Source of the DNA: Bacteroidales bacterium
GTDB taxonomy: Bacteria; Bacteroidota; Bacteroidia; Bacteroidales; UBA932
Assembly (NCBI GenBank): GCA_017960545.1
Contig: JAGCYZ010000045.1
Coordinates: forward strand, 1-45,793
Direction of reading: 5' to 3'
DNA: 45,793 nt
Part shown: piece after piece, positions 1 to 12,428 of the stretch
Layout of the letters: each line of letters starts with the position of its first letter
How positions within the stretch are numbered: the first letter of the stretch is position 1
Program-made: the position numbers and the translations under genes
Notes under the pieces: generated by a model
Told to the model about the DNA's origin: nothing
Seen by the model: only the letters and a program-made list of their open reading frames with translations
Databases searched by the model: none

Positions 1-999
1 GAAGAGTATCCTCACTTCATTTATGCGTTGATGGAGAGCTATGCTGCTCAGATTAAGCAATCCTACCGAAACGACCCGCGCTCTGGCATCCGGTTGATGT
101 TCGACTGGCTCTTGAAGACCAGAGAGATTATAGAGGAGCAACACCAAGCTATACCAACCCTTTACCTTGCATCCGACATTGCAGCCAAGAAAGATTTTCA
201 GAAATGTCAATCAAAGGATACATGGCCGGTAAAACTAAATGTGTATTCGCTTCTCTTCCGATACTTCCATAATAGGATAGAAAGCATTCTTCCTGAAATG
301 CCGGATTCCATGGCGAATCACATTCCGTATAATATGTGGATAGGGGAGTATGATGAACTGAAGGCAAAGTACACTGGTAAGTTCGGGCTCGAATTTCGAC
401 AACGCGCCATTGTCAATGTCGAGGACAACAAAAAGCTCTTCTTCGAAGTTCTCGTTGAGCAGTGTATGACTTTCTGCCGCCAGATGACCTCTGACAATCC
501 AGTACTGTCAAACGAAGATGTCTTCCGGCAATGTGATGAGCCAATGACGGCACTTATTCACTCATACTTCCAGGATTATATCACCCGTTTGCAAACGAAT
601 TCTATTGTTGCTACCGATATCGATGCGGCTATCATCAATTGGATTGTCTCACTGCTGACAGACATATTCGAGACTTACTTTGCCAATCAAGGTAAGGTTC
701 TCAACAAATGTGGCCGGACTCCCGCTGTCGATGTTGCCTCAATGCGATTCTATCTTGACATATGCGAGAGGAACATTCTAGAAATCGCTCATGTCTATTT
801 CCAAGATAGTGAAAGGATTCCTCTGATTAAGACAAAAGAGGAACCGAAGGAACCCCTAGAGTCGGCAGGGATAGCAAGCTCCGACAAAACGCATGTAGCG
901 GCAGTTGCCACAAGGCCGACTGGTTTTAGAACCACTAACCAAAATGGTGAAAAATCGGTGTATGTGGAAGAGAATAAAGGTACCATTATCATCAATTGA
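1..999 (+). CDS. Unknown protein, 5' end cut by window edge, with C-terminal sticker-like motif
   Basis: The reading frame is open from base 1, so the gene starts upstream; TTG at 28 and ATG at 31 are probably internal. About 330 residues are visible. They look helical and soluble, with no signal peptide, membrane segment or catalytic motif that I recognise. A low-complexity linker rich in A, T, K and E (about the last 60 residues) leads to the extreme C-terminus, which carries NQNGEKSVYVEENKGTIIIN (937-996). Nearly the same 20 residues occur inside the next protein, whose start lies 5 nt downstream of this stop. The tight spacing and shared motif suggest co-expression and a common complex, probably in a conflict system. 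I considered the RteC regulator family but saw no convincing match. Function unknown. Confidence 0.75.
   Translation, partial: EEYPHFIYALMESYAAQIKQSYRNDPRSGIRLMFDWLLKTREIIEEQHQAIPTLYLASDIAAKKDFQKCQSKDTWPVKLNVYSLLFRYFHNRIESILPEMPDSMANHIPYNMWIGEYDELKAKYTGKFGLEFRQRAIVNVEDNKKLFFEVLVEQCMTFCRQMTSDNPVLSNEDVFRQCDEPMTALIHSYFQDYITRLQTNSIVATDIDAAIINWIVSLLTDIFETYFANQGKVLNKCGRTPAVDVASMRFYLDICERNILEIAHVYFQDSERIPLIKTKEEPKEPLESAGIASSDKTHVAAVATRPTGFRTTNQNGEKSVYVEENKGTIIIN
937..996 (+). repeat. Shared protein motif, copy 1 (C-terminus of first gene)
   Basis: This encodes 20 residues of the pattern N-Q-N-G-x-K-S-V-Y-V-x-x-N-x-G-T-I-I-I-x, directly before the stop codon. Copy 2 is at 1682-1741. At least 15 of 20 residues are identical, while many codon third positions differ. 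That indicates conservation of the peptide and not a recent DNA duplication. Confidence 0.85.
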
Positions 1000-1003
1000 G
1001 ATT

Positions 1004-2464
1004 ATGGCTGAAGAACTACATAATGAGAAGGAGTTCTATCAAGACAATGGATGGCCAACCGAAGAGTATTCTTTGTGTGGATATGTGTTACCGGTATTAG
1101 AAGAAGATGCGAAAGAGTCGGATTATGACCAATTCGCTTTAATCACTAATGCTGTTTATCCGTACATTCGATTGACCAAAAAACGTGGGAATAGTCATAT
1201 CCCTTGTGGATGTGCATTGTCCCCTGCTACTGATGGATGGTTTGCCAGCAGGCCAGAGAAAGAACGAGATAAGTGGTGTCCGAAGATAGCTTGGGGGTTT
1301 GCTGCTGTCTTCCTTGCAAACCTCAATTATGATTTTGGCCAAAAGGATTACGTATCTCTTAAGGATAATGGAGAACTAATTCGTGGTTACTACAACAAGT
1401 ATTTGACTATGTACTTACAATGCCATAATGGGCTAAAGTACAAAAGTCTAACGCTGGAGCAGAAGGAGTTGAATTTCATAGAGGAACACGCGGTGCTGGT
1501 AAAGGCATTATGGGAGAAGTCGGAGGCACTAAAAGCCTATACTGTACTATATGAATATGCGTATGATGCTGAAGTTGATTATGAGGAGTTCTTACAAAAA
1601 AGGAGGGAAGCAATTGTGAACATGATGGAAGGGAACGCTGTTTTTCCCATAACCAAAGATATGAAGGAACAGCGAATTATCAACCAAAATGGTAACAAGT
1701 CCGTTTACGTGGGAAACAATACCGGGACTATAATAATAGGTTCAGATATGCCTGATAGATATGCTTTTAGCACAGAAATAAGAGAAACGTTTGGAAAACC
1801 ATACATCAAGGTTTTCTTCCTTGATGATACTATCGCAGAACAGGCAAAAACTGTGGTTGAAGCATTGAATTGCATTAAGAATGTGAATATTACGGTTAGC
1901 TCAAGCTGTGCACATCCCGGCAACTCTTTGACCGTTTATCCCAAGCAAATGGTGGGTGCCCGGTCCTGTGAGGAAGAGGTGAAGAAATCCTTACATAGTT
2001 TCTTCTCTGGAGTTACCAAAGGAGAGATGCATCCAAAGAATGAGGCCTTTTTTGAGGGGATAGAACAAAAGATTCTTGATGCTTTAAACAAGGCGGAAGC
2101 GACTATTGATGTGTGTGTTGCTTGGTTTACAAATCCACAGTTGAGAGATAAGCTGCTTGAAAAGAGTAAAGACGGTGTAGAGGTTCGCGTTATTATCTAC
2201 AAGGATGGCGTTAACCATTCAAAGGGAGTTGATCTGTCCAGCCTGAACCACAAAGAGTATAGAGGGGAAAGAGGCGGTGTCCTTCACGATAAGTTTTGTG
2301 TTATCGATAATGTACATACTATCTGTGGATCGTATAACTGGACACTAAATGCTGAGCATAAGAATGATGAAGATGCAGCGTTTCACTTTGAAGATTACAA
2401 GTTTGCTTCAAGTTATACCAAAAGGTTCAATCAGATGTGGAAAAGAGACGAAAGAAAAGTATGA
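1004..2464 (+). CDS. Phospholipase-D-family (HKD) nuclease-like protein with central shared motif
   Basis: 486 aa. The ATG at 1004 was chosen because it lies just after the upstream stop (997-999); the longer frame from 905 would overlap that gene. Four parts can be seen. Residues 1 to about 220 are unknown and rich in acidic and aromatic residues. Residues 226-245 hold the motif NQNGNKSVYVGNNTGTIIIG, shared with the preceding protein. Residues about 257-337 form a small alpha/beta module containing N-S-L-T-V-Y-P. Residues about 338-482 are a PLD-like domain with one HKD signature, H428-x-K430-x4-D435, followed by GSYNWT. Single-HKD proteins of the Nuc type act as dimers on nucleic acid or phosphodiesters, so this is the likely effector. 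The target and trigger are unknown. Codon use is A+T-rich like its neighbours. It is likely cytoplasmic. Confidence 0.85.
   Translation: MAEELHNEKEFYQDNGWPTEEYSLCGYVLPVLEEDAKESDYDQFALITNAVYPYIRLTKKRGNSHIPCGCALSPATDGWFASRPEKERDKWCPKIAWGFAAVFLANLNYDFGQKDYVSLKDNGELIRGYYNKYLTMYLQCHNGLKYKSLTLEQKELNFIEEHAVLVKALWEKSEALKAYTVLYEYAYDAEVDYEEFLQKRREAIVNMMEGNAVFPITKDMKEQRIINQNGNKSVYVGNNTGTIIIGSDMPDRYAFSTEIRETFGKPYIKVFFLDDTIAEQAKTVVEALNCIKNVNITVSSSCAHPGNSLTVYPKQMVGARSCEEEVKKSLHSFFSGVTKGEMHPKNEAFFEGIEQKILDALNKAEATIDVCVAWFTNPQLRDKLLEKSKDGVEVRVIIYKDGVNHSKGVDLSSLNHKEYRGERGGVLHDKFCVIDNVHTICGSYNWTLNAEHKNDEDAAFHFEDYKFASSYTKRFNQMWKRDERKV
1682..1741 (+). repeat. Shared protein motif, copy 2 (middle of PLD gene)
   Basis: This encodes residues 226-245 of the PLD-family protein, between its unknown N-terminal part and its small alpha/beta module. 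Alternating beta-prone residues (S-V-Y-V and T-I-I-I) flank an N/G turn, which is the look of a short beta-hairpin or beta-arch. It is the counterpart of the motif at 937-996. Confidence 0.85.
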
Positions 2465-2621: not shown

Positions 2622-4388
2622 ATGAAACAAACTGAACTTGAAGTTAGAAGAATTATTGAGTACAGTGATTTTTTTGTGGGTGATGCTCCTATTGATATCA
2701 GAGCCACATTAAAGCACTTCAACCGTAACACTCTTGTTCGAATGGCAGCTATCCTAAGTCTCCATTATGGAAACATGAGTTTCCCTAACAAACAAAACAC
2801 ATTGTTTTCAGATAGTAGCAAAAAGCACATACCGTACTTAAACAAACTATTTCAGTCGTATTATAATAGAATAGGCTTAAAACAAGGTCAACTTGTAGAA
2901 GTCACGACCTATAGAACAGGTCTTGAGTTATGGCGGCAGATATTCGCAATACCTGTCGAAGAATTCATCAACGATGTTGAGGAATCGGACGCGGAATTAC
3001 TTCTTTTCAAAGTAATTCTCTCCATAAACGAGAAGATGGTATTTTTCTCACATGAAAAAGACATGTACAAACTTGATGAACTCATTTTTCTCAATGGTTT
3101 CTTGACGAATGACAGCAATAACTATGAATTACAGACGGTTCTTCTGCCACAACTGTTTTATTTCTTCCAATTGATCAGCTTTATACCTTTGAATGAAGTG
3201 CTCAATAAGGCGACAGAAGTATTATTCAACAAATGGGGCATAGTTAGTTGGCATCAGTATTACACTACACTTTTTATCATTGCGAATCAAACAGATTCAT
3301 ATATAAAAAAGCAAAACAACGGTGTCCCTATTATTTCAAAAGAGTGGATAGAGCACAATAAACAGTTCCTTTCATTATCTCTTTTTGAACATCTGTATAT
3401 CGACGAGGATGAATATATACCCTACAACGATGATGTTGCTTCTAAGAGCGAATTGAACATAGATTATCGAAGATTTCGTTCTAACCCTCTCGTAAAATTA
3501 AAGGATGGCTCCGGTTATGTTGTAATCAACAATCAGCTGATCTGTGAACGATTATTCAATAGCCTTTACTTTGACTTAAGCCCTTTGATTAACGGGAAAA
3601 AGAGTAGTATTGGTTCCTTTGATTACAATAAAGGTTTTATCGAGAAGGTCCTTTTCCGCAACACTTTCTATAATTGCTTACCCTCAAAATGCTATACTTT
3701 TCCGGTAAAAGGTGATCGCGATACACAAGAAAAGCCCAAAGAGCCAGACTTTTATGCTCGCACGAAAAAAGGGGAGTTAATAATTGTGGAGTGTAAAGCC
3801 GTTAAAATGAATGGTGAATGTAGAGATGATGGAGATTACGGTCGTCTTCTTGATGAATTACATGAGAAGATTGTTCGAAAGACACGTAATCTTGACCCAA
3901 CCAGGAAAAAGCACAAAGGAGATCCGGAACCTATTGGCGTTGGGCAGTTGATCAGGCATATTGATGCTATAGAGGATGATTCTTTTGAGTGGGATAAGAA
4001 TATTCCTGACGATGTCATCTATTACCCTCTTCTGGTCTTTGAGGATATTAAATTAGTCCAAAAGGGAATTCTGTCTATGGTAAACCGCTGGTTTTATGAA
4101 GAGGTAAAAAAAGAGAAAGTGCTTTCTATAACTGATATAACCTGCATGCCTATTATGGTTACTTCAATCTATACACTGTTCCTGCAAGATAAACTCTTGA
4201 AAACGAGAGGACTTACGAATGTAATTGATTCATTTGTGGCTGAGAATGCAAAAAAGAATCATAAAACAGGACAATACTTATTTTCCGAATTGGCCGATTT
4301 TGATGATTATCTTCGGAGCAATCCATTCAACAAAAGAAGCGACATGATGAGATGGCATAAACAATTGATGAATGGATTCGAGGAATAA
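2622..4388 (+). CDS. PD-(D/E)XK-type nuclease protein of unknown family
   Basis: 588 aa from ATG at 2622; a TTG two codons upstream is less likely. Residues 1 to about 330 are mostly helical and unrecognised, with no membrane segment. The C-terminal half holds a restriction-endonuclease-like core: P375-D376, then a beta strand ending in V-E390-C-K392, the classic PD-x(n)-E-x-K arrangement. Basic helices follow (K-I-V-R-K-T-R-N). The protein probably cuts DNA or RNA. No methyltransferase, helicase or specificity gene is adjacent, so this is not an ordinary restriction-modification unit. It lies 157 nt after the PLD gene and 111 nt before the STAND gene, all on the same strand, and could be an independent defence gene or part of a larger cassette. 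Confidence 0.75.
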   Translation: MKQTELEVRRIIEYSDFFVGDAPIDIRATLKHFNRNTLVRMAAILSLHYGNMSFPNKQNTLFSDSSKKHIPYLNKLFQSYYNRIGLKQGQLVEVTTYRTGLELWRQIFAIPVEEFINDVEESDAELLLFKVILSINEKMVFFSHEKDMYKLDELIFLNGFLTNDSNNYELQTVLLPQLFYFFQLISFIPLNEVLNKATEVLFNKWGIVSWHQYYTTLFIIANQTDSYIKKQNNGVPIISKEWIEHNKQFLSLSLFEHLYIDEDEYIPYNDDVASKSELNIDYRRFRSNPLVKLKDGSGYVVINNQLICERLFNSLYFDLSPLINGKKSSIGSFDYNKGFIEKVLFRNTFYNCLPSKCYTFPVKGDRDTQEKPKEPDFYARTKKGELIIVECKAVKMNGECRDDGDYGRLLDELHEKIVRKTRNLDPTRKKHKGDPEPIGVGQLIRHIDAIEDDSFEWDKNIPDDVIYYPLLVFEDIKLVQKGILSMVNRWFYEEVKKEKVLSITDITCMPIMVTSIYTLFLQDKLLKTRGLTNVIDSFVAENAKKNHKTGQYLFSELADFDDYLRSNPFNKRSDMMRWHKQLMNGFEE

Positions 4389-4499: not shown

Positions 4500-7400
4500 A
4501 TGGGCGAATTTGTTCCAAATAAAAACGCGACTGAATCAAGTAAACTTGATCAAAGGTCGATCCGCTTCATCAAGACTCTTCTTCCTGATGATGATGTTGA
4601 TTGCAGCCAGCTTCACGAGGGAGGTACGCTGCCGAATATCGACGGATATCTTGACTTTCTCTGTAAGGATGGTACCGCAAATGAACGCATCTTTGTTCAA
4701 GTAAAACATCTTACGTATGCACCAGTTAACGGCGAAGCGTATTATGATATCCCTAAATCAATTTATGCATATTCGGAGCGACATAAGGGCGAAGTCATTG
4801 TTTTTATTGCTTGTTATCCCGAAAGTGAAGTCTTCTATTGGAGATATATAGACGGCAAAGCAATAGAAGAGTTCAAGAGTCTTTCCGAAACTATACAAGA
4901 GACAGCACGGTACCACTTCAAGCCAGAAGAGTCTTGTACCAAAGATAATGTCGACACTACAGTTGCAACTTGGAAAAGGCTGTATAAAGAGCGCATGGAG
5001 GCTATAAAGGACGAGAAGCAATTGGCAGAAGCATTTGCGTCAACTCAAAGAGTAGCCTTCAACCGGATTCCTTTTGAACTGCACGGCTTGAGTAATTCCC
5101 ATATACGAAGGCCGGAGACCGGCCTATTGTACAATTGGGTTATAAAAGGTCTACCATCCGGGAAAAAGAATCTGTGTCTTCTAGTCGGCGACGCCGGGAT
5201 GGGCAAATCTGTTGTTATCAAAGACTTAATTGGCCATCTTGAAGATGATGGTGTACGGTGTCTCTGCCTGAAAGCTGACACCTTAGATGATGCCAGCAAT
5301 CCCGTTTCACTGGAGACTATTTACGATACCCTTGCTTATTATGCATCTAACCAGCAACCGACAGTCTTCATTATAGACCAAATTGACGCATTATCCCAGA
5401 GCCTTTCCACTGATAGGAACCGATTAAATACGTTAATAAGCGTATTGTCATCCATAGAAGATTGGCCAAATGTTCGGGCTGTTGTTTCGTGCAGGAAGTA
5501 TGATTTGGAGTATGATGCGGTCCTAAATGGCTTAAAGGACAAATCTGAAATCGTCGAATTAGGCCTGTTGTCTGAGAGTGAAGTGAAGGATGCTCTGGAG
5601 AAACTGGAGCAAGGGCTTGTGGGTAAAATAAGTCCCACTACGTTTTCCATCCTAAGAAATGTTCAATACCTCAACTCATTCTGTTATCTATTTCAGAGAA
5701 ACAAACGAAGATTGAATTTCAACAGTCCAATTGAACTGTATGATGCACTGTGGGATTCTGTTTTGGATGGTCTTCCTGCTCAAATTGTTTATAACGATGC
5801 AGAAAAGGTTTTATACGGCATTGCAGAATGTATCAAGAAGTCTGGGACTCTGAAACCGATCTGGCAGCCGATATCCAATCTGCGTGCTGCTTATACTTAT
5901 TTGGCAAGCAATGGTATTGTGCTACCTGACGGAAACGCCGTTTCCTTCTTTCACCAGACGTTCTTTGACTATGCGCTTGCCAAATCTTATCTTTCCCAGA
6001 ATAAGTCATACATATCCGATCTCGAGAATGAATTTCAGGGCCTTGAGATAAGGTCCACAGTAAAGGCTGTTTTAGAATATGTCCGGGGACATAACGATGT
6101 AGGATACGCCTCAGAGATTCAGCAACTACTTACTTCTAAGAAGATTCGTCTTCACATTAAACTGCTAGCCATCTCAATCTTTGCAACAGCAAACGATCCT
6201 AGACCCGTAGAAAAAAGGATTGTAAAGACGGTCTGTCAGAAAGATGAAAGACTCCTTAGTTATTATTTCCGGGGTGTACAAGGCGAAACTTGGTTTAGTA
6301 CTGCTTCGTTAATGCTTAAAGCTTATCTGCCCGATTCTGATAAGAACAGCATTCTTCTCATACCCATGCTGAGCGTGCTTTCCCGTTATTCATTCAGCCA
6401 TCCTGACGAGGTGTACTCGCTGATTGATTCGATCAAGGATGAAGAGACAAAATTATATGCACGCTCCTTCGTATTGCGAGGACATAATGACTATCGTAAC
6501 AATAAGGTGATTGACGCATTTCGTAGTGTCTGCAGTCCCGGAAATGTATTTGCTGTCAATTGGATTCAAGATGCGATGCTAAGCAACGAAGTGTTTGGAC
6601 TTGAAGAGACAGGTAAACTGCTCCAACAATTCCTGGAATCCGATAACCACTCTCACAATCACGATGGCTATGAGTTGGTCGATGTGCTTTCAAAGAATCT
6701 TTCCAATACCCACCCAGGTCAGTTCCTTCCCATTTTGCATTCTTGTTTTGTTCAGTTCATTAGGAAGAATGCTGTTGAGGGTTACAATGGCTTCACAATT
6801 ACCAAGCACTTTAATGGCTTTTCTTCTGATGAGTATTTGGATAAGCTTCTTGACATCTATGAGCAGCTACTTTTAAGATTCTCATCAAATCTGGCGGTAA
6901 TAACCCCTATGGTGGACGAATTATTATCGCTGAATAATGAGACTTCTTTGGCGATGGCGTTTTCAGCGATGGCTGAACACCCGGAATTGCATAGCCATAT
7001 ATTGGAATCGCTTGTGGCCAATTCATCAACGATTGAGAAGTATCTGCAGGGATCAGTTGAGTATTATTTCTTGAAGATGCTGAAATCCTGGTATCTGACG
7101 CTTGATAACATGAATGCAGAAGAATACCAGAGGAGAGTCCTTTCTTATGTCTCCTCATCAGATTTCTTGGCGAATAAGGAGAAAAAGTACAGCAAGATGC
7201 CATTTCCTCATCTATGGCATGAAAAATGGGAGTTGATATGCAACACATTGCCCGATAATGGATTGCTTCCTGAGATGAAGAAATGTGCTGGAGAACTGCA
7301 ACGGCGATTCGGAAGGAAGTTTATCGTTGAAAGAGACCGTCACGGAATAATGTCAGCGGTTTATTGTGGAGGGCTCACTGACGATGCTACATACGCAACT

Positions 7401-8771
7401 TTCTCTACGGCTGTTTGGCTCAGTTCGTTTGTGAAACTTAACGAGACAAAAGCCTGGCATTTCAACAGGAAGCCGATAGACTTACGAGCCCATGCCGACG
7501 CATTTAAGAAGTGTGTTGCAGCAGTTCCTGTCAAGTTCAAGGACTTCGTGTTTGAAATCTCACAGATGAAAGATATTAATTCGGATTACTTAATATCTGG
7601 AATTGAAGGGCTGCTTGATGGAGGGGTGGACATTGGCGAAATGTGGCCACTGGCAAGCAGATTTATCTGTACCGAATATGCTTCTGCAAATTCTTTCTCT
7701 TTCGGGCAAATAGCCGGTCATTACTTTAAAACGGATAACAAATACATCGACATGATTTTGCCGGTGGTTGTAGATGTTATGGCTTTACCGCCAGACGAAC
7801 GACTGACTGCCTATAGCGACAATAAAACTGAATCAAAACTCGAGGATATCGTTAATAATATGCTTACCCGTGCCATTAACTCAGAGCAGGGGAGAGCATT
7901 AGAGCTTTTGATCCAACTGGCGTCGATACCTAAAAGAAGAAAGCAAGCATATGAGATTATAACAAACGCAATCCCTTCTCTTAATCAATGCTTGAGAACA
8001 TTGCCCGTACACTACCTATATGTGAAAGATCATTTTGATGTGTCCATGTATTTCCCTCTCTTGAAAGAGTGCCTGTCATATCTTGGGCCAGAAGCACTTG
8101 TGCTACGATTGGATGCGGTCCAATGGTGCTTTTATCACAAGCCAGAAGTGGTATGCGATTATATCGAAAGGATTGAGAAGGATCCTAAGAGCCATGTTAT
8201 CCTATCGCAGATTTGTTTCTATGGGTTATGTGTGGACAATCAAAGAGACAAGTGCGGCGAGTTGCTGGAGCGGATTCTCTCGCATAATGACGAACATGTA
8301 ATTGCTACAATGGTCAAAGTGTCAATGAAAATGTTCGCTGATCCTGACTACATACCGTATTCGCGAGCATATCTCGAAAGGTTTGTAACAGACGGAAGAG
8401 AAGAAGTTGTAGATTCCTATTGTTTATATTGTGATGAACTCCCTATCGAAGCCTTCTCCTTCTATATAGAATTAGCCAAGTCCTGGAAGAGCCAAAAACA
8501 CCGTAATATTCATTCGCAACTTGAATATGTAACAAAATGCATAGCATCCTATCCCGTGGAGTGTTATAAGTTTGTGCAAGATCAGGATTATGCGAGCATT
8601 GAAGATCAATGGATTGCAGATGAGGAAGTAGTAAAAGTGCTATTAAAGATCTATGGCAAGCTGAAAGAGGATGAAGATGAGGAATCCCTCAATGAGATTA
8701 TGGCTTTGTTTGATGAGTATATTTATAGGGGAAATCGTGTAATATATTCTGCCATCGGTAAACTCACATAA
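4500..8771 (+). CDS. Avs-like STAND NTPase with N-terminal PD-(D/E)XK/DUF4365-like domain
   Basis: 1423 aa. Residues about 10-130 resemble the DUF4365/Mrr-like nuclease fold: I-D48-G-Y-L-D52 followed by F-V-Q67-V-K69, the D...QxK variant of PD-(D/E)XK. Residues about 185-500 form a STAND P-loop ATPase: Walker A GDAGMGKS (230-237), Walker B VFIIDQID (289-296), sensor-like VVSCRKYD, and SFFHQTFFDYALAKSYL (about 482-498), typical of the winged-helix end of NACHT/STAND modules. The remaining roughly 900 residues look like helical repeats, expected to sense a ligand. Nuclease, STAND and long helical repeats in that order is the layout of antiviral Avs proteins, which oligomerise on binding a phage protein and then activate the nuclease. 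Ligand unknown. The sensor repeats were not assigned to a named Avs subtype. Confidence 0.82.
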   Translation: MGEFVPNKNATESSKLDQRSIRFIKTLLPDDDVDCSQLHEGGTLPNIDGYLDFLCKDGTANERIFVQVKHLTYAPVNGEAYYDIPKSIYAYSERHKGEVIVFIACYPESEVFYWRYIDGKAIEEFKSLSETIQETARYHFKPEESCTKDNVDTTVATWKRLYKERMEAIKDEKQLAEAFASTQRVAFNRIPFELHGLSNSHIRRPETGLLYNWVIKGLPSGKKNLCLLVGDAGMGKSVVIKDLIGHLEDDGVRCLCLKADTLDDASNPVSLETIYDTLAYYASNQQPTVFIIDQIDALSQSLSTDRNRLNTLISVLSSIEDWPNVRAVVSCRKYDLEYDAVLNGLKDKSEIVELGLLSESEVKDALEKLEQGLVGKISPTTFSILRNVQYLNSFCYLFQRNKRRLNFNSPIELYDALWDSVLDGLPAQIVYNDAEKVLYGIAECIKKSGTLKPIWQPISNLRAAYTYLASNGIVLPDGNAVSFFHQTFFDYALAKSYLSQNKSYISDLENEFQGLEIRSTVKAVLEYVRGHNDVGYASEIQQLLTSKKIRLHIKLLAISIFATANDPRPVEKRIVKTVCQKDERLLSYYFRGVQGETWFSTASLMLKAYLPDSDKNSILLIPMLSVLSRYSFSHPDEVYSLIDSIKDEETKLYARSFVLRGHNDYRNNKVIDAFRSVCSPGNVFAVNWIQDAMLSNEVFGLEETGKLLQQFLESDNHSHNHDGYELVDVLSKNLSNTHPGQFLPILHSCFVQFIRKNAVEGYNGFTITKHFNGFSSDEYLDKLLDIYEQLLLRFSSNLAVITPMVDELLSLNNETSLAMAFSAMAEHPELHSHILESLVANSSTIEKYLQGSVEYYFLKMLKSWYLTLDNMNAEEYQRRVLSYVSSSDFLANKEKKYSKMPFPHLWHEKWELICNTLPDNGLLPEMKKCAGELQRRFGRKFIVERDRHGIMSAVYCGGLTDDATYATFSTAVWLSSFVKLNETKAWHFNRKPIDLRAHADAFKKCVAAVPVKFKDFVFEISQMKDINSDYLISGIEGLLDGGVDIGEMWPLASRFICTEYASANSFSFGQIAGHYFKTDNKYIDMILPVVVDVMALPPDERLTAYSDNKTESKLEDIVNNMLTRAINSEQGRALELLIQLASIPKRRKQAYEIITNAIPSLNQCLRTLPVHYLYVKDHFDVSMYFPLLKECLSYLGPEALVLRLDAVQWCFYHKPEVVCDYIERIEKDPKSHVILSQICFYGLCVDNQRDKCGELLERILSHNDEHVIATMVKVSMKMFADPDYIPYSRAYLERFVTDGREEVVDSYCLYCDELPIEAFSFYIELAKSWKSQKHRNIHSQLEYVTKCIASYPVECYKFVQDQDYASIEDQWIADEEVVKVLLKIYGKLKEDEDEESLNEIMALFDEYIYRGNRVIYSAIGKLT

Positions 8772-9292: not shown

Positions 9293-10714
9293 TTATTTCC
9301 CGATGCAGAAGTGCTGGAAGATGTTGGCGAGGACTTCGTCAGTGGTGAATTCGCCGGTGATGGCGCCGAGGTGGGAGAGGGCGGAGCGGAGATCCTGGGC
9401 TATGAGTTCTGTTGAGAGGGTAGTGTCAAGGGCCTTGCGGACCGCAGTGAGATCTTGGAGGGCGGCGGTGAGTTCGGAGTAGTGGCGGGCGTTGGAAACG
9501 AGGACGTAAGAGGAGGCGTCAACCCTGTCTGACTGGGTTTTTTCGAGCATTTTTTTGAGTCCAGGGACGCCTTTTCCAGTCAAAGCGTTGATTTCTATGA
9601 ATTGAGGGGTAACTTGTTGGTTTTCAAGGTGTGAAACAATTTTGCATATATCGTTAACATTTTTGTTAACCCCCATAATATCGGCTTTGTTACCCACAAA
9701 AATCAGTTTTTGGGAGGTCAAATCTACTGATGCTTTGATGGTGTCCGCATCGGCCTTGATGCGGTCGATTGGAAGGCTCAGGTCGAGTACTGCAAGGACT
9801 ATGTCGGCCTGGGAAATCTTCTTGAAAGTGCGCTCGATTCCCAGCTTCTCAATGGTCTCCGAAGCATCGCGGATTCCGGCGGTGTCTATGAAGCGGAAGA
9901 GGGTGGAGCCAATGGTCATTGTCTCTTCAACGGTGTCCCGGGTGGTGCCGGCAATGTCGGAGACTATGGCGCGGTCTTCTCCAAGAAGGGCGTTGAGCAA
10001 AGTGCTCTTGCCGGAATTGACGGCACCTGCAATGGCAACCGGCACTCCGTTCTTTATGGCGTTGCCAAGACGGAAGGTTCTTGCCAGGGAAGATATCAGA
10101 TTGCAGGCATCGTCAGTCAGACGCTTGAGTTCAGAACGGTCCGCAAACTGGACATCCTCTTCGGAAAAGTCTAATTCAAGTTCCATTAACGAAGTGATTT
10201 CCAATAACTTGGAACGCATCTTCTGAAGCTCTTCTGAATATCCGCCCCTAAGTTGGTTGACGGCTATCCTGTGAGCGGCCTTGCTGCCGGAGGCAATCAG
10301 GTCCGCTACGGCTTCGCTCTGTGCCAGATCCATCTTGCCGTTGACGAAAGCACGCTTGGTAAACTCTCCTGGTTCTGCCGCTCTTGCGCCAGCTTCAATC
10401 AGCAGAAACATAATGCGTTGCACTATGTAACTTGAAGCGTGACAAGAGATCTCTGCAGAGTCTTCTCCGGTATATGAAAGGGGAGAGCGGAATACGGTGA
10501 CAAGCACCTGGTCAAGCTCCTCTGAGCCATCATAGATGCACCCGTAGTGAACGGAGTAGCCGGGGGCGTCTATAACGGTTCCTTTCTTTAGGGTTATCAC
10601 CTTGTCGGCAATGGCAAGGGCGTCGGGGCCGGAGACCCTGACTATAGAAACTGCCCCGGTGCCTGAAGAGGTAGCCGGGGCGCATATCGTTTCATTGAAA
10701 CTGCTAATAATCAT
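9293..10714 (-). CDS. mnmE: tRNA uridine-5-carboxymethylaminomethyl(34) GTPase MnmE
   Basis: About 473 aa from ATG at 10714; an in-frame ATG at 10726 would overlap rho further. MnmE works with MnmG to modify the wobble U34 of certain tRNAs, using a folate-derived C1 unit. The N-terminal domain begins [20 protein letters not shown], typical of the folate-binding part. The G domain shows GAVNSGKST (G1), GTTRDT (G2), DTAGIRD (G3) and NKAD (G4). The protein ends in the family C-terminal motif C-I-G-K. It overlaps the end of rho by about 11 nt on the same strand, so the two are probably one transcript. Length is normal. Confidence 0.95.
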
Positions 10715-12428
10715 AAGACTTTGCATCCCTCGGAGAAACCTTGCTCATATTGTCAAGCAGGTCTTCGTTGGTCTTGTACTCGTCCATAAGGTTGAGCATG
10801 AAGTTCATTGCCTCGATAGGATTCATATCGGCAAGGATCTTTCGCAGGATCCAGATCCTGTTGGCGGTTCCCTTGGGGTAGAGCAGGTCGTCGCGGCGGG
10901 TGCCGGAAAGGAGGATGTTCACGGCAGGGAAGATGCGCCTGTTGCTCAGGGCCCTGTCCATCTGGACTTCGCTGTTGCCGGTGCCGCGGAATTCCTCAAG
11001 GATGACCTCTTCCATCTTGGAGCCGGTTTCGATAAGGGCGGTGGCGATGATGGTGAGGGAGCCGCCGCCTTCTATGTTGCGCGCAGCGCCAAAGAAGCGC
11101 TTGGGCTTCTGCAGGGCGTTGGCATCGACTCCTCCGGTGAGCACCTTGCCCGATGCGGGCTGAACAGTGTTGTACGCACGTGCGAGCCTTGTGATGGAAT
11201 CGAGGAATATAACTACGTCGTGACCGCACTCAACAAGCCTGCGGGCCTTTTCAAGCACCATGTTGGCAACTTTTACGTGCCTTTCGGCCGGCTCGTCGAA
11301 AGTGGAGGCGATGACCTCTGCTTTTACGCTGCGCTCCATATCGGTAACCTCTTCCGGACGTTCGTCAATAAGGAGGACTATTTCGTAAACCTCGGGGTGG
11401 TTGTCGGCGATGGCGTTGGCCAGCGACTTGAGGAGCATGGTTTTACCGCTCTTTGGAGGGGAGAGGAGCATCATTCGCTGACCCTTGCCTATAGGGGCGA
11501 AGAGGTCCACCACGCGGCAGGAAATGTCCGAATTGTGGCCGCGGCCAAGGAGGTTGAACTTCTCATCGGGGAAAAGCGGGGTGAGGAAGTCGAAGGGAAC
11601 CCTGTCGCGGATGTATTCCGGGGTGCGTCCGTTGATGTATTTGATGCGCACCAGGGGGAAGTATTTGTCTCCCTCGCGAGGGGGGCGGATCTCGCCGGTT
11701 ACAGTGTCGCCAGATTTGAGGGCATTGCTGCGTATCTGGTTCTGGGACACGTATATGTCGTCAGGGGAGTTGAGGTAATTATAGTCTGATGAGCGAAGGA
11801 ATCCGTAGCCGTCCGGCATGATTTCAAGGACGCCGGTAGCCTCAACTGTGCCTTCGAACTCGACGGGAGCAGGCCTTTGCGGCTGGGGCTGAGGCCTTGG
11901 CTGCTGATTCTGCTGCTGGGGAGGGTTCTGGGGCTTCTGCTCGGGCGCAGGCTGCTTTGCGGCCTCGGCGGGCTGCTGCTCCTGAGCCTGGGGCGCGGCT
12001 TGCTTGCCGGCCTTCTGGGCCGGCTTGCGTCCGCGCTTCTTGGGCTCCGCCGGAGCTGCCTCCTTTGGTGCCGGAGCTGGCGCCTCCTGAGGCTCGATGG
12101 ACTCTTGTGCCGGCTGCGCCTTTACGGCCGCCTTACGGCCGCGTTTCTTGGCTTCCTTGGGCTTCTCAGGCGTGGGGGCGGAAGCGGGGGCCGCATCGGC
12201 CTTTGCAGGAGCGTTGTCCTGCGCGGCCGCTTTGGCCGCAGTCTTCCTGCCCGCGCGCTTCTTTGGCTTGGGAAGCGGCGTGGCTGCCTCGGCCCTGGCC
12301 TCGACATCCAATATTTCAAATGCTAAATTTTCTGATGAAGTTCTTTTTGTGACCTTGATGTTGAGGTCCTTAGCGATGGATTCGAGCTGTTCACGGCTCA
12401 TTTTATCCAGTTCGAATAAAGTATGCAT
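10704..12428 (-). CDS. rho: Transcription termination factor Rho with long disordered insertion
   Basis: 574 aa from ATG at 12428 ([20 protein letters not shown]), which fits the Rho N-terminal domain; the longer frame to 12473 adds an unlikely leader. Rho is a hexameric RNA-dependent ATPase that releases transcripts. Residues 1-45 are the Rho-N helical domain. Residues about 46-188 are a low-complexity insertion of A, P, K, Q and E with three basic patches of the KKRxGRK/KKRGRK type (about 56-62, 94-99 and 130-135). Residues about 189-255 are the cold-shock-like RNA-binding domain. The ATPase follows, with Walker A SPPKSGKT (323-330). E. coli Rho (419 aa) lacks the insertion, which is known in Bacteroidota. 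A TATATTTG box lies about 60 nt upstream. Confidence 0.96.
11865..12293 (-). other. Segment encoding the Rho low-complexity region
   Basis: About 143 codons, G+C-rich and repetitive, encode the A/P/K/Q-rich insertion of Rho. The strong third-position bias opens long spurious frames on the opposite strand (for example 11877-12352). Confidence 0.85.

What the first reader, a model, noticed from the sequence alone, without database searches (positions are those of the whole stretch)
937..1741. Two adjacent proteins share a 20-residue sticker motif
The C-terminus of the first protein and the middle of the PLD-family protein both carry N-Q-N-G-x-K-S-V-Y-V-x-x-N-x-G-T-I-I-I. The DNA differs at many third positions, so the peptide is under selection. 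Paired motifs between neighbouring genes are how some bacterial NLR/effector pairs communicate (bacterial amyloid signalling motifs; the V-Y-V-G-N-N core of copy 2 is loosely reminiscent of RHIM cores). Inference: the first protein senses or scaffolds and recruits the PLD effector through homotypic beta assembly. This is the best candidate for an undescribed system in the window.
Basis: partly seen in the sequence, partly recalled or inferred. Interest (0 to 1): 0.78.

Follow-up and report, generated by a model that had tools for sequence, protein, structure and literature searches.

The report
Shared tag links immune sensor, effectors
Two neighbouring bacterial genes carry the same 22-letter protein tag, and in related bacteria that tag joins an immune-receptor-like sensor to its killer enzymes, which suggests a simple way for gut and mouth bacteria to switch on self-destruction during infection.

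Summary
In detail: gene 1 (extreme C-terminus) and gene 2 (middle) share a 22-residue motif (15 identical; 9 of those 15 use different codons). It is not chance. A degenerate pattern hit 12 stretches among 84,980 species genomes, all 12 titled as Bacteroidota. In 8 of the 10 genomes behind them the motif sits at the N-terminus of a NACHT protein and at the C-terminus of the TIR protein next to it (two TIR genes are split). Segatella copri, found independently, shows the same pair. In L096 the operon reads NACHT-TIR-gene 2 homologue; window DNA matches it from gene 1's tail through gene 2's front, not in gene 1's body. So gene 1 probably sits in the TIR slot with a swapped body, gene 2 is a second effector with a Nuc-type PLD domain, and the sensor probably lies beyond the contig edge. 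Topology matches published bacterial amyloid signalling sequences (BASS) and fungal HET-S systems. Amyloid assembly is untested and BASS1-10 profiles were unavailable. New variant of a known kind.

The parts
1..999 (+). Gene 1: C-terminal 332 residues of a protein cut by the contig start; body without any family match; ends with the motif
   Evidence: ORF; best library match is DNApol3-delta_C at E 0.13, below its cut-off, none in PADLOC, NCBIfam, PHROGs or PDB sequences; no relative in 393 order genomes, viral contigs, plasmids or phages; gene 1 was not searched in genome contigs
874..996 (+). Gene 1 tail: linker plus motif (residues 292-332), homologous to the tails of TIR effectors
   Evidence: 41 residues 63% identical to L096 TIR tail, E 7e-11; 56% to L103 and 51% to L099 TIR tails; DNA similarity to L096 begins in the last 120 bases of gene 1
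931..996 (+). Motif copy 1, effector type, at the extreme C-terminus
   Evidence: profile E 7.0e-12 (this copy is one of the profile's rows)
1004..2464 (+). Gene 2: N-domain, motif, insert, Nuc-type PLD domain (486 residues)
1004..1675 (+). Gene 2 N-terminal domain (about 224 residues), no named family; also found as a separate 245-residue protein that ends at the motif
   Evidence: 71% identity to L096 9583-10770 over residues 1-248 and 47% to L098 9201-9938 over residues 3-245, motif included in both; alignment A3
1676..1741 (+). Motif copy 2, effector type, internal
   Evidence: profile E 5.8e-10 (this copy is one of the profile's rows)
1742..2035 (+). Stretch between motif and PLD, some 85 residues longer than in the L039/L096 homologue; residues 255-319 resemble an ORF in L037 (36%)
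2072..2440 (+). PLD-like domain with one intact HKD signature (H428-x-K-x4-D-x6-G-S)
   Evidence: PLDc_2 E 4.2e-21; top PDB sequence match of the A3 profile is 1byr endonuclease, E 6.4e-16; H428-x-K located, rest of the signature read from the sequence

Best explanation
The motif is a homotypic signalling tag of a STAND/NLR defence operon. In the full system (seen in relatives) a NACHT sensor carries the tag near its N-terminus, and one or two effectors carry it at or near their C-terminus: a TIR protein, a protein with gene 2's N-domain with or without a PLD nuclease, or a small membrane protein. When the sensor is triggered and oligomerises, its tags would be brought together, form a beta-strand/turn/strand stack and recruit the effectors' tags onto it, as HET-S/NWD2 in fungi and BASS in bacteria are thought to do; the crowded TIR or single-HKD PLD domains would then become active and kill or halt the infected cell. 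In the window both genes are effector-side members: gene 1 occupies the TIR slot with a different body joined to the old tail, gene 2 is the PLD effector, and the sensor lies beyond the contig start. Shown: the tag, its conservation, its placement, the operon in relatives and the abrupt change of similarity at gene 1's tail. Inferred: the body swap as its cause, the sensor in this genome, beta assembly, activation by crowding, and the defence role.
For: Tag at NACHT N-terminus plus TIR C-terminus in 8 of 10 pattern-found genomes, the TIR gene being split into two frames in two of the eight (L036, L102); the other two genomes are a NACHT cut by its contig end (G402) and a Cytophagales pair of small tagged proteins without a NACHT relative in the 10.5 kb read (G399). 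Ten tag instances not used to build the profile were then found, each within about 6 kb of another tagged gene: 8 and both members of the Segatella copri pair. In the 13 effector-side proteins or fragments without PLD found in these loci the tag is at the very C-terminus in 13 of 13. L096 has NACHT-TIR-gene 2 homologue in a row; DNA similarity of the window to it starts in gene 1's tail and runs through gene 2's front, with none in the part of gene 1 before that. Control: a NACHT relative without the tag (L114, 28% identity) lies beside a TIR remnant without the tag. The conserved pattern reads as strand (K8-S9-[IVL]-Y-[IV]), turn (N15-x-G17), strand (I19-x-I/V21). The PLD is nearest to the Nuc endonuclease, which acts as a dimer (recalled), so clustering could activate it.
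Against: No structure or fibril evidence: structure prediction was off. The receptor itself was not found in this assembly. Matching of NACHT and TIR tags within a locus is only slightly above shuffled pairs (mean BLOSUM 54.9 against 51.5, p 0.08 over all 40,320 permutations of 8 loci; L100 left out because its receptor copy is degenerate). That receptor copy has lost its second half, N15 and G17 included (profile E 0.0092). Gene 2's tag is internal, not terminal. A second tagless NACHT relative (L115) showed no TIR relative beside it in the stretch read. No defence assay exists, and PADLOC gave only partial or weak matches (for the NACHT proteins PDC-M54A over about 300 of 1,657 positions, E down to 7.9e-19).
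Confidence: 0.66

Rival explanations
1. The tag is a docking peptide, not an amyloid: a beta-hairpin that binds a groove, another tag copy one-to-one, or a shared third partner (adaptor, chaperone, protease), so that sensor and effectors form a finite complex.
For: Receptor and TIR copies are not alike: position 14 is K/R in 8 of 8 NACHT copies and E, H or N in 8 of 8 TIR copies, and position 20 is Y/F in 7 of 8 NACHT and 0 of 8 TIR copies, as expected of a heterotypic contact. Amyloid behaviour was not tested.
Against: The same core positions are kept on both sides and in several kinds of effector, which favours like-with-like assembly; partly diverged receptor and effector copies are also reported for PUASM in fungi (PMC9815663, passages read).
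Confidence: 0.22
2. Gene 1 and gene 2 work on their own, for example as a scaffold and a PLD effector or as a toxin and its holder, with no NACHT partner.
For: No tagged NACHT was found in this genome's assembly. A Cytophagales locus has two small tagged proteins and no NACHT relative in the 10.5 kb read.
Against: The assembly is 78% complete and the contig ends inside gene 1; in the closest relative found (L096) the same gene 2 lies behind a tagged NACHT and TIR.
Confidence: 0.09
3. The motif is a chance likeness or a recent local duplication without function.
For: Two short copies 745 bases apart in one window would allow it.
Against: 25 aligned instances keep Q4, G6, N15 and G17 in all, one further degenerate copy (L100 NACHT) being left out; 9 of the 15 shared residues use different codons; the pattern occurs only in Bacteroidota clusters of tagged genes.
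Confidence: 0.01

Closest known systems
BASS1-10, bacterial amyloid signalling sequences (Dyrka et al. 2020, not held; known to me here through passages of PMC7889193, PMC9815663, PMC8086366, PMC12261475)
   Same: Short motif at the N-terminus of an NLR and the C-terminus of the neighbouring effector; 20-40 residues; the review says some BASS go with TIR domains
   Different: [quoted passage not shown] here no Bell annotation was seen, hosts are Bacteroidota, effectors are TIR, a PLD domain, an unnamed domain and small membrane proteins, up to two tagged effectors behind one sensor. Sequence match to BASS1-10 could not be tested
Fungal HET-S/NWD2 and PP (RHIM-like) amyloid signalosomes
   Same: Receptor-side copy at the NLR N-terminus, effector-side copy at the C-terminus, clustered genes
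   Different: Different effectors; no HET-s, sigma or PP model of Pfam is among the matches at E <= 1 of the 14 proteins scanned, though short models are hard to match
RHIM
   Same: About 20 residues, beta-prone, N/G-rich turn
   Different: Q of the core replaced by Y in 22 of 25 and G present in 3 of 25 instances (core recalled)
STAND/NLR proteins with a fused effector (SEFIR-NACHT of Nostoc; DUF4365-NACHT of this window)
   Same: Related NACHT module, 27-32% identity over that module
   Different: Another domain fused at the N-terminus where the tag stands here; the DUF4365 match is E 0.0066, below its cut-off
Nuc-type PLD endonuclease (1byr) and DrmC
   Same: Single-HKD PLD domain
   Different: Here attached to an unnamed N-domain and the tag; DrmC equivalog cut-off missed by far (gene 2: 17.9 against 133 bits)

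Membership tests
BASS-type NLR/effector pair | Motif at the NLR N-terminus and at the C-terminus of an adjacent effector | tested here: met
   Met in relatives: 8 of 10 pattern-found genomes and Segatella copri. In the window itself only effector-side copies are present; the contig ends upstream
BASS-type NLR/effector pair | Effector is a Bell domain protein | tested here: not met
   Effectors are TIR, PLD, an unnamed domain and small membrane proteins. No Bell model was known to me in the libraries; the review PMC7889193 allows TIR partners, less often
BASS1-10 | Match to one of the ten published motif profiles | not testable with these tools
Amyloid signalling motif | Forms amyloid or prion-like assemblies and templates the partner | not testable with these tools
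   Needs bench work; structure prediction off
Amyloid signalling motif | Beta-arch fold | tested here: inconclusive
   Sequence pattern strand-turn-strand with N15 and G17 kept in 25 of 25 aligned copies fits; no structure available
RHIM | Core [IV]-Q-[IVL]-G (recalled) | tested here: not met
   Y in place of Q in 22 of 25, G in 3 of 25; no RHIM model among Pfam matches at E <= 1 in the 14 proteins scanned
STAND/NLR defence system (sensor of the relatives) | NACHT-type P-loop NTPase with long C-terminal region | tested here: met
   NACHT E 5.8e-9 in L097, residues 78-229 of 1309; eight tagged homologues at 51-64% identity (one of them cut) and one at 30%
Effector-associated domains (EAD) | Folded helical adaptor domain shared by sensor and effector | tested here: not met
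   Shared part is 22 residues; only a 96-residue Cytophagales protein gives EAD11, at E 0.13, below its cut-off

The most novel reading that the evidence does not exclude
A new family of prion-like immune signalling tags, outside BASS1-10, in ordinary non-filamentous gut and mouth Bacteroidota, where one NACHT sensor drives several exchangeable killers (NAD-cutting TIR, Nuc-type nuclease, membrane protein) that swap bodies by recombination just in front of the tag, so that the tag acts as a plug for new effectors.
Probability: 0.45. Interest if true: 0.78.

Novelty: new variant of a known kind. Interest (0 to 1): 0.62.

Why it matters
Published bacterial amyloid signalling motifs are described mainly from multicellular bacteria and Bell effectors (passages). 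A distinct tag in common Bacteroidota, with a cultured named host that has an intact tagged pair (Segatella copri DSM 18205) and two more whose TIR gene is split (Porphyromonas pasteri JCM 30531, Prevotella pallens ATCC 700821), makes the question whether bacterial NLRs signal to separate effectors by templated beta assembly directly testable in ordinary laboratory bacteria, and suggests how one sensor can drive several effectors and acquire new ones.

Tried and rejected
Rejected: gene 1 as sensor (tail and position are those of the TIR effector). Gene 4 (DUF4365-NACHT) as the partner: no motif in it at E <= 0.05, and its full-length relatives L117 (48%) and L116 (38%) stand without tagged genes in the stretches read. 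RHIM membership. Chance or duplication.

Led nowhere: relatives of gene 1 in viral contigs, plasmids and phages and of gene 2's front in plasmids and phages; gene 2 in genome contigs by peptide patterns; gene 2 in 393 order genomes, where 68 genomes matched but, among the matches listed, only through the PLD part except the G371 insert match and its own genome; motif patterns in viral contigs; the TIR in viral contigs and the NACHT in phages; gene 3 in viral contigs; the gene 2 insert in plasmids; motif profile against PDB sequences; PHROGs, which matched only the PLD part of gene 2 and weakly the NACHT. Within-locus matching of tags: p 0.08, not counted as support. Literature searches for a prior description: (listings); passages were seen of PMC12261475, PMC8086366, PMC7159879, PMC12881547, PMC9815663, PMC7889193, PMC10907252, PMC13174449, PMC8195603 and the outline of PMC7885112. 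None of what I saw describes this motif or the NACHT-TIR-PLD operon in Bacteroidota; most subscription papers, the original BASS paper and the bacterial NACHT paper are not held.
Full report
What is there. The window starts at the first base of a contig of a 2.0 Mb, 78%-complete genome. From about 9.3 kb on it holds ordinary chromosomal genes (mnmE, rho, dnaA, ftsH and others, judged by eye). Its order includes Porphyromonas (G087, see below), so it is Bacteroidales. Gene 1 (1-999 +) is cut by the contig start and ends in the motif. Gene 2 (1004-2464 +) has an unnamed N-domain, the motif at residues 225-246, an insert and a PLD-like domain at 357-479. The two proteins share only the motif above noise.

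More than chance. A profile of 16 motif rows (A2) in 393 genomes of the order gave strong matches only in this genome and in G087 (two each, all four rows of the profile); the next best was E 0.006. An exact degenerate pattern in genome contigs (84,980 species) hit 12 stretches, 12 of 12 titled as Bacteroidota, with about 0.5 expected by a hand estimate. Four of them fall in two clusters, so they come from 10 genomes. G087 and G398 match at the same places and appear to be the same genome, Porphyromonas pasteri.

Where the motif sits. In 8 of the 10 genomes a NACHT protein of about 1,300-1,430 residues carries it at its N-terminus (in L098, and in the cut NACHT of L104, after three hydrophobic segments) and the TIR protein encoded next to it carries it at its very C-terminus. 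In two of the eight the TIR gene is split: in L036 an N-part frame lies between NACHT and the tagged TIR frame, in L102 the tag is on a separate 80-residue frame. TIR_2 was found by Pfam in four TIR proteins scanned (L099, L100, L097 above cut-off; L111 E 2.2e-4, below cut-off); the others are TIR by homology to L099 (31-66% identity over the set). G402 shows only a NACHT, cut by its contig end; G399 (Cytophagales) shows two small tagged proteins, one with two hydrophobic segments, and no NACHT relative in the 10.5 kb read. All 22 matches of E <= 0.01 in the 10 whole genomes lie in one cluster per genome, at most about 6 kb wide; six weaker matches (E 0.065-0.92) lie elsewhere and are taken as noise. 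Eight of the 22 were not rows of the profile. A further independent test came from a plasmid search with the NACHT of L097: 12 records matched, one over its full length, Segatella copri DSM 18205 (51%), and both its NACHT (E 3.6e-7) and its next gene (E 4.8e-10), annotated as hypothetical, carry the motif at the expected ends; a search with the TIR found the same record alone.

The window in this light. L096 (Bacteroidales bacterium RGIG7951, water buffalo rumen) has NACHT, TIR and a gene 2 homologue in a row, all three tagged. Its TIR ends 4 bases before the gene 2 homologue, as gene 1 ends 4 bases before gene 2. DNA similarity between window and L096 is at background before gene 1's last 120 bases, rises there and continues through the front of gene 2 (806 aligned positions at 75%, window 927-1731). 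Gene 1's last 41 residues are 63% identical to that TIR's tail while the rest shows no match to it. I read this as an effector-body swap just ahead of the tag, with gene 1 in the TIR slot. L098 carries gene 2's N-domain as a 245-residue protein that stops at the motif, behind a tagged NACHT and TIR; gene 2 and the L096 homologue carry on into PLD. The PLD part is nearest to Nuc endonuclease 1byr among PDB sequences with one intact HKD signature. So both window genes are effector-side members; the sensor is expected upstream, beyond the contig, and was not found elsewhere in the assembly (motif profile to E 0.05; NACHT of L097 to E 1e-20). Gene 4, a DUF4365-NACHT, is a separate relative of the sensor (32% over the NACHT part) with another domain where the tag would be.

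Anatomy of the tag. Over 25 aligned instances Q4, G6, N15 and G17 never vary; S9 is S in 22, Y11 is Y in 22; positions 10, 12, 19 and 21 are always aliphatic or M. One more copy, at the L100 NACHT, has lost its second half and was left out. The rest reads as strand, N-x-G turn, strand. In the 8 loci with both copies intact the receptor copy has K/R at 14 (8 of 8) and Y/F at 20 (7 of 8), the TIR copy E/H/N at 14 (8 of 8): receptor and effector copies are related but not the same. A test for matched pairs within loci gave p 0.08, no support.

Control. NACHT relatives without the tag exist. L114 (28%) has another N-terminal region and, next to it, a broken TIR remnant that also lacks the tag. L115 (25-35%, in two frames) has no tag and no TIR relative in the stretch read. 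In Nostoc a related NACHT has an annotated SEFIR domain fused in the tag's place. Tag on both sides or on neither is what a pairing device predicts, but only L114 tests it.

How it most likely works. Proposed for known systems: NLR oligomerisation templates effector amyloid motifs (HET-S/NWD2, BASS; passages of PMC7889193 and PMC9815663). Applied here: the sensor assembles, its tags stack, effector tags join, and TIR and PLD domains, both of which act as oligomers or dimers (recalled), switch on. The beta assembly, the trigger and the antiphage role are inference.

Known or new. The review PMC7889193 (passages) says BASS motifs lie at NLR N-termini and effector C-termini, mostly with Bell, less often with CHAT or TIR, and that ten families is a conservative estimate. 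[quoted passage not shown] I could not compare sequences with BASS1-10 because the original paper is not held and supplements cannot be read. The literature searches listed no paper that I saw to describe this motif. I therefore file it as a new variant of a known kind: same logic, probably a new motif family, a Nuc-type PLD effector with internal tag, a new host group, and operons with two tagged effectors and an apparent body swap.

Limits. Eight of the 10 pattern-found genomes are titled as metagenome assemblies; the exact pattern would miss variant tags; the genome budget (1,976 of 2,000) went to same-order searches and to the pattern's own genomes, so breadth outside Bacteroidales rests on the pattern alone. 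Gene 1 was not searched in genome contigs.

Noticed in passing
window 4500-8771 +: DUF4365-NACHT protein of 1423 residues, apparently a self-contained STAND protein; full-length relatives L117 (48%) and L116 (38%).
   Followed up: partly
window 2622-4388 +: 588-residue protein without any family match; the string PDFYARTKKGELIIVECK looks like a PD-(D/E)xK nuclease core (recalled motif).
   Followed up: partly
window 9293-10726 - and L036 10301-11500 -: Both the window cluster and the Porphyromonas pasteri cluster lie next to mnmE (judged by eye), a possible shared insertion site for defence genes.
   Followed up: no
L036 4335-5547 and L102 3931-5138: The TIR effector gene is split into two overlapping or consecutive frames (N-part and TIR part), in L036 with its own start, in L102 with the tag on a separate short frame.
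   Followed up: partly
L097 3036-4430 - and L111 12624-14024 +: Proteins that look alike (PRTILS..FGDGKS P-loop) lie next to the tagged pair in both loci; judged by eye only.
   Followed up: no
L100 4578-10017 +: The NACHT tag has lost its second half while a tagged 68-residue membrane protein with receptor-type K14 lies two genes on; it may have taken over the receptor-side role (speculation).
   Followed up: no
L103 2336-3433 -: Reverse-transcriptase-like ORF near the tagged cluster (judged by eye).
   Followed up: no
window 1766-1960 + and L037 5030-5686 +: Part of the gene 2 insert (residues 255-319) is 36% identical to part of a stand-alone 218-residue ORF of G371; function unknown.
   Followed up: partly
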